The notes under the pieces: generated by a model
The model's database searches: none
Told to the model about the DNA's origin: nothing
The model's input: only the letters and a program-made list of their open reading frames with translations
Program-made: the position numbers and the translations under genes
Assembly: GCA_035041965.1 (NCBI GenBank)
Contig: JAPYMA010000070.1
Span: 1-64,000 of the forward strand
Length of the DNA: 64,000 nucleotides
Origin: Anisakis pegreffii
Taxonomy: Eukaryota; Nematoda; Chromadorea; Rhabditida; Anisakidae
Direction of reading: 5' to 3'
Shown: positions 34,187 through 43,791 of the stretch, piece after piece
Position numbering within the stretch: position 1 is the first letter of the stretch
Layout of the letters: each line of letters opens with the position of its first letter

Positions 34187-37100
34187 ATGGCTGAGTCTTC
34201 GCAAAGTTTCGTGGAACTGTCATCAGGTGTCAATCAAGATAACAGCCAAGAATCATTGGCGCCCGAGGCGAAGCAAATGCTTGAGAAACATTTCGAAGAG
34301 GTTGTCTTTTGCATTTGATGAATTCAGAAAACATTTGATTTCTGAATATCGGAAGTTGATTGCACGGATATCAAATACCAACAGAATTGTTTATCCGATT
34401 CATCTTCAAATATTTCTCTGTGCAAATAGGTTTTTGTTCAAATCGCTGTACGTATACTCTCCGAGCAATTTAATTATCTGTTTGATTTTGACACTTCGCA
34501 GTTTAGCTGACGAATGAGAGTTGACTTTTATAGCTTGAATCGCTCACTTTCAACAACTGATATCTGCAATCTTTGAAACTTTCATAACAATATTTGATGA
34601 AGAATCGAACTTAAAGTAAAAGGATTACTCATAACCAGTAACTTGTGGTTTATACCGGATGGAATTCTTTCAGAAAGCAGTTTCACTTGTTAACTCTCCA
34701 GTCACCAATACTAATTCACTGACGAGTACAATTCAACAAGGGTATAATTCTTACTAATTTTTCGAATATTTAAAAACCGAAATTAAACCGCACGACTGTG
34801 GGTTGTTTGCCAGCTGAACCGTTGTTTTTATTATAAATGAATGCTAACCCTAGCATTCATCACTTTTCAAATAACGTTGGCATTTTCTTACATAACAGAT
34901 CGTTTAGAAATAGTTTCATGATCACTATTTATCCAATTTTGCTTTGTAATACAACGCGTGAAAATACAATAGTTTCATGATCATTAAGCTACAGAGGAAT
35001 GTACAATATAAGTTAATTAGCATATTTGTTTTCATATAGGAAAACATTCATTTGCAAATTTCAGTGATCCGACTTCAACGCAGGTAACACCATCTTCTAA
35101 CAATAAGGTAACCACTCCACAGAATGCATTTCAAGGTAAACTAAATTGTGTTTTCGTTTGACTCCCGAGTTACTTGCAACAGTATTGTTGTCGAATATAA
35201 ACGGGCAGCTGATCAATAAAATGTCAAATTTATGTATTACCGGTGTTGGACGTCATAACGAATGAAAGAAAATAAACTACAAGGAAATGCGTACTCAGTC
35301 ATTTGTTTTTAAGAAGCTGCCAAAATATCGCGCAATAAATTTGTGAATATGAGCGAAGCAAACGAAGAACTGCAAAGAGTGAAAGATGAAAATTTTGAAC
35401 TGAAGAAAGAAATTTTCATTCTGAAGCGTGAATTACCGAACGTAATTGATGCAGATGGGAAGGACATCATTGCTGAGGTTAGTGAAATGCATTGTTATTT
35501 TAAAATGGTGTATTCGAATTGAATTATCAGAATTATATCATCAAGTGTATTGATGCATTGATTTGCATCTATTCTTGCTATGATAATTTTGACTGAAGGG
35601 AACTGGGATGTTCAGTGTTCCGTATTGCATATTCAAATGGTCATATGTTGCTGTCGATCCTGTGAATTACCACAAATATTATTGTCAACTTTACGAGAAG
35701 ATGCATTATAGTTTACTGCAGTTCATTAATGGTTCTAAAATTGATTTTAGTACATTGAATGTCGCGATAAGATATTTAACGCTGAAACACGACGTATGGA
35801 GTTGGAGGAGGAGTTGAGAACCATGAAAATGGAGATGAACGATCAGAAGAGGAAATTCGAACAGGATCGGGAGGAGTTGAATTGTCGTTGGAAGAATGCA
35901 ATCGAGGAACGCGACTCACTCAGTGAAGAATTGGCCAAAGTTGGTTATTTTGTCAGGTTTTTATGCTAAACGAGAAATCGCTAACTAAATATCTGAACAT
36001 CGAACATTCAGTAGTACTGAACATGCGTAGGAAAATTTTTTTTGTTATAAAAGGTTCGTATTTCTTCTGCTGATGATAAGAAAAGATATTAGGCATCCAT
36101 TCATATTATCAAAATGTTATCATGTTTTATCATTCATTCGATTGTTTATTTATTTCAATAAATTCATTCGTAGATATTCATCGTTAGCATGCACATCGTT
36201 GTAAGTAAGCAAGTTGATGTTATAATTCAGTAATGAAAGTATTAGTAATAATATTAACATGAAGGAACGTCGTGAACTGTTCGCAAGTACACGTCTGACG
36301 AACAAGTTGCAAGTAGAGCTATCAGCGCTTCAATCGAACGCAATTCAGCACTGCGTTTCAAGTGATGAACAAGGTGACAGCACGCTGGAAAATCTATCGA
36401 TAATGTCAACCAGGGACAAGTAAGCCTTTTTGTTGAATCGAGTTAATGCTGATTGAGTTATTCGTTGCTGTTAAGTGAATTGAAATGTCGGGACTGAAAG
36501 GCTTCAGTTATCGGTTGTGATATCATTGAGAATGAAACGACTCAATTGTTGACGGCGATAAGTGAATTGTCGTTTGACTTGTTAATGAAATGCTAACTGA
36601 ATGCGGTCAAAAAGTCAGTCTCATTAAGTCGAATGTTTTGCAGGGTGATTGAAGATCTCAAAGGCACATTACTGGAAATGACCGTTAAGGAGGGTGGTTT
36701 ACGTGATAAAGTTGACTCATTGATAGCTGAAATTGAGAGTAGTAAAAAGAAATTGAATGAGGAAAAAGAATTGAGAATTTCTGCAGAGAGGAGCCTGGCC
36801 AATCTTCAAATTCAATACGATCAGCTCACTGAGGTAAATGATTATCACTTCAAACATTAATGTGAACTACTGAGTAACTGAAGTTCAGCATCTGAAATAT
36901 GATTTTTAAAGTCAAGTGGAATTGAATTTCAAACTGGTAATTTCATTCGTTGAATCGACCCTTTGAATTGTTGCATGCCATCGAACTAACTAGAGAACTT
37001 GATTTTAGATTGTTGTAAAACGCTCGAATTGTTGTGTTGATGACTTGGATTGAAATGTATGATTTTAAGGAAAAAAAGCTCGTTGAGAGCAAATGGGAAG

Positions 37101-43100: not shown

Positions 43101-43791
43101 ACGAGCAGGCTAAGCTGGAGCAAAAAGAAAATATGGATCCCAATGTTGATACGGTATGTCTCATTCATGAATAATCAGTGTTGGTGGGAAATCAAAACAG
43201 AAATTCAAAACATCAAATATGAATTTATAGGTAAATGGGAGTATTAGGGGAGATACCATTGAAATGAAAATAATTTCAGTTGGATGCTTTCAAAAATGAA
43301 AATATTCGTCTTCAGTTGGCATTGGATGATGCACAAGAGACGCTGAAAGCAGCGTACGAAAAACTCAGTGCAAAGGTTCTCTTTCCCTCTTCTGAACTTC
43401 ATTTGATTTCATTTCATGTTGCATCTGCTTACATCTCCAAACGGACTGATCAATGGCTAATTTCAGCCATAATTACCTTCAATTTTTTAAAATTTACGAC
43501 TTTTCTCTATCCCAAATCTTCATTCGTTTTTGAAATTTCTTCATTTTTAATTTGTTTTGCGTTTTTTGTATAATCGTTTGCTGACAAAATACATCATTTT
43601 TGCTAATCGTAAGTGTTTCTGTTTGCCACAGAGTAATGTAGAAATTTCAGCCGGATTCAACAGAGATGAGTGAGCGCATCGTACACGAACTGCAGAAAAT
43701 ACTCCGAACAATGAAATCGACCAAACGCGATGCACGCCTTTTGGACCGCAGATCAAAGCGTAACTCGTCGGAAAGCGATGTGAGAAAGTGA
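34187..43791 (+). CDS. Long coiled-coil protein with CM1-like motif (centrosomin/CDK5RAP2-type candidate)
   Basis: Probable centrosome or microtubule-organising scaffold (inference). Exons: 34187-34300, 34674-34741, 35065-35135, 35314-35477, 35751-35956, 36231-36419, 36644-36833, 37070-37195, 37372-37497, 37664-37834, 38086-38232, 38369-38492, 38666-38772, 39005-39158, 39357-39577, 39660-39734, 40103-40258, 40581-40725, 40898-41091, 41316-41423, 41703-41839, 41981-42139, 42433-42539, 42807-42916, 43013-43153, 43280-43375, 43651-43791. All 26 junctions match in phase, giving 1248 residues. Residues 1-84 are Ser/Thr/Gln-rich and disordered-looking. At 102-125, ELQRVKDENFELKKEIFILK followed by REL matches the CM1 core pattern (ENF.LK..I..L). 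Heptad-like coiled coil fills most of the rest, with a Leu/Phe-rich non-coiled block near 460-560 and a Ser/Pro linker near 1055-1090. The exon model is strong; the family call is tentative. Confidence 0.8.
40794..40882. repeat. Intronic foldback with third partial copy
   Basis: Arms at 40794-40820 and 40824-40850 (27 bases each, two mismatches) are inverted copies containing AATATTCAGTG and TAGTCATTG. A third, direct partial copy follows at 40859-40882. It sits just before the exon starting at 40898 of the CM1-like gene. Confidence 0.85.
42307..42353. repeat. Perfect 14-bp inverted repeat in an intron
   Basis: CTGAATGCAGAAAA at 42307-42320 is the exact complement of TTTTCTGCATTCAG at 42340-42353, with extra CTGAATG phrases in the loop. 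Within an intron of the CM1-like gene. Confidence 0.9.

What the first reader, a model, noticed from the sequence alone, without database searches (positions are those of the whole stretch)
34187..43791. Nematode coiled-coil giant with a CM1-like motif near the N-terminus
All 27 exons join in frame to a 1248-residue protein with a disordered start, an ENF.LK..I..L segment at 110-125 that matches the centrosomin motif 1 core, and then almost continuous coiled coil. CM1 proteins (Drosophila Cnn, CDK5RAP2, fungal Mto1) recruit or activate gamma-tubulin complexes. The C. elegans functional counterpart SPD-5 is very divergent. If this is a CM1 protein it could be a less diverged nematode version linking the two. 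Exon structure is seen; the role is inference.
Basis: partly seen in the sequence, partly recalled or inferred. Interest (0 to 1): 0.75.

Follow-up and report, generated by a model that had tools for sequence, protein, structure and literature searches.

The report
Anisakis SPD-5 centrosome scaffold with CM1
This is a parasitic roundworm's gene for SPD-5, the protein that builds the material around centrosomes, and its front end keeps the microtubule-nucleator docking motif of human and fly proteins more clearly than the much-studied C. elegans version does.

Summary
The gene is real: 27 exons splice in frame with 26 of 26 GT-AG introns to 1238 residues. The nearest relative is an Anisakis simplex protein, then Toxocara and Parascaris. 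It is the SPD-5 orthologue: profile-profile comparison with Caenorhabditis SPD-5 gives probability 96%, P 5e-9, centred on SPD-5's PLK1-regulated helical hairpin. C. elegans SPD-5 scores 13.0 bits in the same register. The Phe of the KENF core is present in 4 of 4 ascaridoid rows and absent in 9 of 9 Caenorhabditis rows. So 'a less diverged nematode version' holds. It is not a new kind of protein: SPD-5 homologues in Ascaris and Brugia were reported in 2014 (PMC4046923, passages), and SPD-5 is already placed in the CDK5RAP2/Cnn family (PMC13215203, passages). What I found in none of my paper searches is the retained ENF core, and a natural Lys at the site of the C. elegans lethal allele or213 (R592K). 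Function is inferred, not shown.

The parts
34187..43791 (+). spd-5 orthologue, start codon to stop codon, 27 exons, 1238 aa
   Evidence: 26/26 GT-AG, one stop; homologues; SPD-5 match
34187..34300 (+). exon 1, predicted disordered N-terminus
34674..34741 (+). exon 2 (weakly supported: absent from the A. simplex record)
35065..35135 (+). exon 3
35314..35477 (+). exon 4, carries the gammaTuNA-like half of CM1
35355..35435 (+). gammaTuNA-like CM1 core (residues 107-133 of the 1259-aa working model)
   Evidence: Cnn_1N positions from 4 on; best of 7 scored candidates in the whole genome
35388..35396 (+). E-N-F of the KENF core
   Evidence: invariant in 4 of 4 ascaridoid rows
35751..35956 (+). exon 5; its first part (35751-35837) is the gammaTuNA-In-like second half of CM1
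   Evidence: Cnn_1N match runs to working-model residue 176, profile position 73 of 74
36231..36419 (+). exon 6
36382..36399 (+). two PLK1-consensus sites (T267 and S272 of the working model) in the loop after the CM1 helices
   Evidence: site kept in 4 of 4 rows; loop in the Toxocara model
36644..36833 (+). exon 7
37070..37195 (+). exon 8
37372..37497 (+). exon 9
37664..37834 (+). exon 10
38086..38232 (+). exon 11, first helix of the hairpin homologous to SPD-5 541-677; codon 38203-38205 is K523, opposite SPD-5 R592
38369..38492 (+). exon 12, hairpin loop and second helix
38666..38772 (+). exon 13, end of hairpin, with PLK1-consensus S593
39005..39158 (+). exon 14
39357..39577 (+). exon 15
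39660..39734 (+). exon 16
40103..40258 (+). exon 17
40581..40725 (+). exon 18
40898..41091 (+). exon 19
41316..41423 (+). exon 20
41703..41839 (+). exon 21
41981..42109 (+). exon 22
   Evidence: same junction as the A. simplex record
42433..42539 (+). exon 23, proline/serine-rich linker before the C-terminal region
42807..42916 (+). exon 24, start of the C-terminal region that lies where SPD-5 has its CM2-like region
   Evidence: position; helices
43013..43153 (+). exon 25
43280..43375 (+). exon 26
43651..43791 (+). exon 27, C-terminal helix and stop; weak colinear match to the SPD-5 C-terminus
   Evidence: P 0.035

Best explanation
The gene is the Anisakis orthologue of C. elegans spd-5 and encodes the main scaffold protein of the pericentriolar material. 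Its N-terminus holds a CM1 segment (gammaTuNA-like helix with ENF, then a gammaTuNA-In-like helix), followed by a loop with conserved PLK1-consensus sites and further coiled coils, then a central helical hairpin homologous to the one in SPD-5's PReM region, and a helical C-terminus where SPD-5 has its CM2-like region. Most likely way of working, carried over from SPD-5: unphosphorylated it is folded back and inhibited; PLK1 phosphorylation at the centrosome opens it, lets its coiled coils and hairpin multimerise into the scaffold, and frees the CM1 region to dock gamma-tubulin complexes that carry MZT1. Shown here: the sequence relations and the order of parts. Inferred: every functional step.
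For: Ascaridoid versus Caenorhabditis SPD-5 profiles: probability 95.95, P 5e-9, working-model residues 489-719 against P0005 546-793. Rebuilt alignment: score 78.1 against a best of 42.5 in 60 block-shuffled nulls. Cross hmmsearch: best real 18.4 bits, best of 369 controls 1.3 bits; the other way 15.7 bits with 0 of 164 controls listed. Ungapped hairpin core RLFEKLRGCAD against RLFERLKSSAA. CM1: 27.1 bits on the piece, 23.4 on the whole protein; 0 of 10 control pieces; the window exon is the best of 7 candidates scored in the whole genome. C. elegans SPD-5 matches Cnn_1N with its E63 (P0005) at profile position 15, the position taken by E118 of the window. PLK1-consensus sites T267 and S272 are in 4 of 4 ascaridoid rows and their Toxocara counterparts lie in a predicted loop between helices 104-195 and 216-330, as SPD-5 T178 and T198 lie between its helices (PMC13215203). 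Partners in the same genome: polo box over cut-off; MOZART1 and GCP exons below cut-off.
Against: The N-terminal regions alone do not align significantly: the in-register CM1 alignment is only third (P 0.022), behind two out-of-register ones, and the C-terminal match has P 0.035. In one search only 3 of 9 Caenorhabditis and 1 of 4 ascaridoid sequences are listed, C. elegans P0005 not among them. Sequence searches from either side did not return the other side. Pfam's Cnn_1N cut-off is missed. No [DEN]x[ST]-hydrophobic site lies in the first 218 residues, so no counterpart of SPD-5 S5/S11 was found that way (the pattern also misses S11 of SPD-5). pair the hairpin serines differently, so the match of S593 to S653 is unsure.
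Confidence: 0.9

Rival explanations
1. It is a separate CM1 protein (a true CDK5RAP2/Cnn paralogue) that exists beside the real SPD-5 in ascaridoids and is lost in Caenorhabditis.
For: The CM1 core looks more like human than like C. elegans (12 against 9 identities over 41 aligned positions to the human segment).
Against: The strongest homology to SPD-5 is outside CM1, in the hairpin. The other Cnn_1N candidates in the genome are generic coils or a globin gene. The genome was searched exon by exon, so a second gene is not fully excluded.
Confidence: 0.05
2. It is another long coiled-coil protein (golgin-, TPR- or myosin-like) and both the CM1 and the SPD-5 matches are coiled-coil noise.
For: Generic coils reach 20-27 bits with unrelated families (PUMA_CC 26.9 bits; Cnn_1N 23.4 bits for a generic coil); Golgin_A5 beats Cnn_1N in the Parascaris piece.
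Against: The SPD-5 match beats 60 of 60 shuffled profiles and 369 of 369 shuffled or reversed sequences, and lies in a stretch with few generic coiled-coil family hits (control piece 3). Cnn_1N is the best family for the window and Toxocara pieces. No PDB sequence matches the whole protein below E 0.1.
Confidence: 0.04
3. It is the SPD-5 orthologue but the ENF core is a chance coiled-coil feature, not a working gammaTuNA; docking runs through the PRGB2-like part alone.
For: C. elegans SPD-5 docks gamma-tubulin complexes without a canonical KENF, helped by PRGB2 (PMC13215203, passages).
Against: The stretch ENFELKK is identical in 4 of 4 ascaridoid rows while flanking residues vary; SPD-5's divergent gammaTuNA is itself needed for recruitment in vivo (PMC13215203, passages).
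Confidence: 0.12

Closest known systems
SPD-5 of Caenorhabditis (P0005-P0012, P0014, P0016)
   Same: Length about 1200 aa, order of parts, hairpin sequence (RLFE[KR]L[RK]), loop with PLK1-consensus sites after the CM1 helices, helical C-terminus.
   Different: Keeps Phe in the CM1 core (4 of 4 rows against 0 of 9); K523/R525 where SPD-5 has R592/K594 (4 of 4 against 9 of 9); predicted helix break between gammaTuNA and gammaTuNA-In in Toxocara (93-103) where C. elegans has one predicted helix 56-164.
Human CDK5RAP2 CM1 (PDB 8rx1 chain G)
   Same: lkkENFnLKlrIyfL against vkdENFeLKkeIfiL in the same register.
   Different: The PDB sequence match is not significant on its own (E 0.25, third after MYC2 and Homer); first residue of KENF is D, not K.
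SPD-5 homologues of Ascaris suum and Brugia malayi (Kuhn et al. 2014, PMC4046923, passages)
   Same: Same family, reported there from coiled-coil-aware alignment.
   Different: The passages I saw do not mention CM1; their sequences were not compared here.
Toxocara canis P0003, named by UniRef 'Cnn_1N domain-containing protein'
   Same: 49% identical over 94% of the query.
   Different: Automatic name only; no function given.

Membership tests
SPD-5 | Sequence homology along the PReM helical hairpin (SPD-5 541-677) | tested here: met
SPD-5 | N-terminal CM1-like gammaTuNA and gammaTuNA-In in colinear position | tested here: met
   same Cnn_1N register for window and C. elegans; not significant in direct N-terminal profile comparison
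SPD-5 | PLK1 sites in the loop after the CM1 helices (T178, T198) and in the hairpin (S627, S653, S658) | tested here: inconclusive
   consensus sites T267, S272 and S593 in 4 of 4 rows; phosphorylation unknown; residue pairing in the hairpin depends on the alignment
SPD-5 | C-terminal CM2-like and centriole-localising region | tested here: inconclusive
   weak colinear match, P 0.035; helical
SPD-5 | Reciprocal recovery by sequence search | tested here: inconclusive
   each returned only their own clade; candidate lists were capped
SPD-5 | Scaffold assembly at centrosomes | not testable with these tools
   needs experiment
CDK5RAP2/Cnn (CM1, Pfam Cnn_1N) | Curated Cnn_1N cut-off of 28.5 bits | tested here: not met
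   23.4 bits whole protein, 27.1 bits piece; so not filed as a Cnn_1N member under Pfam's rule
CDK5RAP2/Cnn (CM1, Pfam Cnn_1N) | KENF core with gammaTuNA heptads | tested here: met
   DENF in window, A. simplex and Toxocara, EENF in Parascaris; Phe in 4 of 4 rows
CDK5RAP2/Cnn (CM1, Pfam Cnn_1N) | Binding of gamma-tubulin complexes | not testable with these tools
   needs experiment

The most novel reading that the evidence does not exclude
The last common ancestor of these nematodes had an SPD-5 with a canonical, Phe-bearing gammaTuNA that could grip and perhaps activate gamma-tubulin complexes much as CDK5RAP2/Cnn does; ascaridoids keep it. Caenorhabditis lost the Phe and shifted the load to the MZT1-dependent PRGB2 region. 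The hairpin surface co-evolved, so that the residue which is lethal in C. elegans (Lys at 592) is the normal one in ascaridoids, with a swapped Arg two residues on.
Probability: 0.35. Interest if true: 0.6.

Novelty: new member of a known kind. Interest (0 to 1): 0.42.

Why it matters
SPD-5 was long seen as having no clear relatives outside Caenorhabditis; its tie to Cnn/CDK5RAP2 rests on short alignments and on biochemistry. Ascaridoid SPD-5 is a sequence bridge: it aligns with SPD-5 in the hairpin and with CM1 in the ENF core. It makes two things testable: whether the KENF Phe decides how a gammaTuNA binds gamma-tubulin complexes where MZT2 is absent, and why R592K is lethal in C. elegans. 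Ascarids are also the worms in which Boveri described centrosomes (PMC6115991, passages).

Tried and rejected
Rejected: a KENF-like exon at G000:C493:33606 (KENFVLKLQIQQL), which sits just before exons that I read as a globin gene (globin recognised by eye, no profile run). Rejected: the second-best Cnn_1N place in the genome, C89, a generic coil that matches 68 families. PDB sequence search of the whole protein gave nothing below E 0.1. Search for Pfam Cnn_1N in the genome at E<=0.001 found nothing, because CM1 is split over two exons; at E<=10 the window exon came first. MOZART2: one chance-level match (E 1.2); absence not shown. The predicted models have mean pLDDT 53 and 54 and pTM 0.21; I used only their helix limits and ran no fold search. 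Rows dropped: P0002 (repeated unit) from alignment A1; 6 of 15 hits (P0007, P0013, P0015, P0017, P0018, P0019) from A2, as close or partial copies. Claims of 'not found in print' rest on paper searches and 75 of one open-access library.

Full report
1. The gene. Read from the sequence, 27 exons run from the ATG at 34187 to the TGA that ends at 43791. A first hand model has 1259 residues. After two junctions were put on consensus splice sites it has 1238 residues, one stop and 26 of 26 GT-AG introns. The database searches and residue numbers below use the 1259-residue working model unless said otherwise; numbers in the refined model are 8 lower between exons 3 and 22. Exon by exon, 26 of 27 are matched by the A. 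simplex record P0001; exon 2 is not.

2. Whose it is. The protein search gave 4 hits among 7986 scored candidates (capped list): Anisakis simplex (95% identity, 100% coverage), two Toxocara canis records and Parascaris univalens. In the alignment the A. simplex row is 99% identical. The window is therefore Anisakis or very close. The genome held for it has 122.7 Mb in 1740 contigs. A transthyretin-like exon of a nematode-type family lies at 58609-58998.

3. SPD-5. A profile of the window plus 3 of the 4 ascaridoid hits was compared with a profile of 9 of these 15: probability 95.95, P 5e-9, residues 489-719 against P0005 546-793. A rebuilt alignment gave score 78.1 over 486-1154 against 543-1106, with 60 block-shuffled nulls reaching at most 42.5. 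In cross hmmsearch, 3 of 9 Caenorhabditis proteins were listed (best 18.4 bits) against a best control of 1.3 bits among 369; the other way 1 of 4 (15.7 bits) and 0 of 164 controls. C. elegans P0005 itself was not listed there. N-terminal and C-terminal regions alone are not significant: the CM1-register alignment 118-133 against 63-78 is the third of three (P 0.022) and the C-terminal one has P 0.035.

4. The hairpin. The matched stretch is the part of SPD-5 (541-677) described as a dimerising helical hairpin with PLK1 sites S627, S653 and S658 and with R592, whose change to Lys (allele or213) is 100% embryonic lethal at 25 degrees (PMC10921949, passages). The Toxocara model has helices 427-476 and 480-536 there; the SPD-5 model has helices 541-602, 607-623 and 629-663. 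RLFEKLRGCAD in 4 of 4 ascaridoid rows faces RLF[EN]RLKSSAA in 9 of 9 Caenorhabditis rows without a gap, so K523 faces R592 and R525 faces K594. The residue that kills C. elegans is the normal one here, with the partner charge type swapped two residues on. This reading is mine; whether it is compensatory is untested.

5. CM1. Cnn_1N is the best Pfam family for the whole protein (E 6.8e-5, 23.4 bits, cut-off 28.5) and for residues 64-210 (E 4.8e-6, 27.1 bits; profile 4-73 of 74). In full-length scans 3 of 4 ascaridoid members match Cnn_1N at E<=1 and 0 of 9 Caenorhabditis members do. On N-terminal pieces: Toxocara 19.6 bits, Parascaris 16.3 (behind Golgin_A5 with 19.9), C. elegans 13.0 (E 0.12), C. 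bovis and C. briggsae none. In window, Toxocara and C. elegans pieces the same residue (E of EN) falls on profile position 15. The human CDK5RAP2 CM1 chain in the PDB aligns in that register too, but not significantly (E 0.25, third). The Phe of ENF is present in 4 of 4 ascaridoid rows; Caenorhabditis has ENK, ENE or QNE in 9 of 9 rows. The 2026 paper on SPD-5 says that its gammaTuNA (59-84) departs from KENF at the Lys and the Phe (PMC13215203, passages). From memory, the equivalent Phe of human CDK5RAP2 is needed for binding.

6. Controls on CM1. 0 of 10 control pieces match Cnn_1N at E<=0.5, but one hits PUMA_CC at 5e-6. In the whole genome the window exon is the best of 7 scored candidates (23.7 bits; next 21.8); the next one reaches 23.4 bits as a piece but matches 68 families, and another KENF-like exon lies in what reads as a globin gene. 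So Cnn_1N scores in this range need context, which the SPD-5 homology and colinearity give.

7. Mechanism. [quoted passage not shown] The ascaridoid protein has the same order: gammaTuNA-like helix, gammaTuNA-In-like helix, loop, coiled coils. Of 10 [DEN]x[ST]-hydrophobic sites in the window protein 4 are kept in 4 of 4 rows: T267, S272, S496 and S593. The Toxocara counterparts of the first two lie in the loop 196-215. No such site lies in the first 218 residues, so counterparts of S5/S11 were not found. Partner genes: a polo-box exon over cut-off; MOZART1 (21.9 bits as a piece, cut-off 27) and GCP exons (18.1-19.5 bits, below cut-off) are likely but not proven.

8. What is known. Kuhn et al. 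2014 found SPD-5 homologues in filarial nematodes and Ascaris suum (PMC4046923, passages); the 2026 paper treats SPD-5 as a CDK5RAP2-family protein (PMC13215203, passages); UniRef already calls P0003 'Cnn_1N domain-containing'. Seven paper searches showed no paper on the CM1 of ascarid SPD-5; the library holds open-access papers only and I saw listings and passages, not whole texts. Hence a new member of a known kind, with a bridging value that is real but moderate.

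Noticed in passing
window 38203-38211: K523 and R525 stand where C. elegans SPD-5 has R592 and K594; R592K is the lethal allele or213 in C. elegans, yet Lys is the normal residue in 4 of 4 ascaridoid rows.
   Followed up: partly
P0002 (Toxocara canis Tcan_06993), residues 336-800: One T. canis record carries eight copies of a 60-residue unit spanning the PLK1-consensus DSTLGDMS, with all 7 measured units identical; the other T. canis record and the other ascaridoids have it once. 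Tandem exon copies or an assembly/model artefact.
   Followed up: partly
window 27516-29651: 436-bp tandem array, 4.9 copies, 98% matches.
   Followed up: no
window 1920-2377: 217-bp tandem repeat, 2.1 copies, rich in GA runs.
   Followed up: no
window 17277-17951, minus strand: Two exons of a cytochrome b561 family gene, both over the Pfam cut-off.
   Followed up: no
window 58609-58998, plus strand: Transthyretin-like (TTR-52) exon, over the Pfam cut-off.
   Followed up: no
window 4255-4482, plus strand: Part of a MIT domain, below the Pfam cut-off; possibly calpain-7-like (recalled).
   Followed up: no
window 34155-34163: A consensus splice acceptor (aatttcag) without an obvious upstream exon, 23 bases before the ATG; could be a trans-splice acceptor. 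Seen by eye.
   Followed up: no
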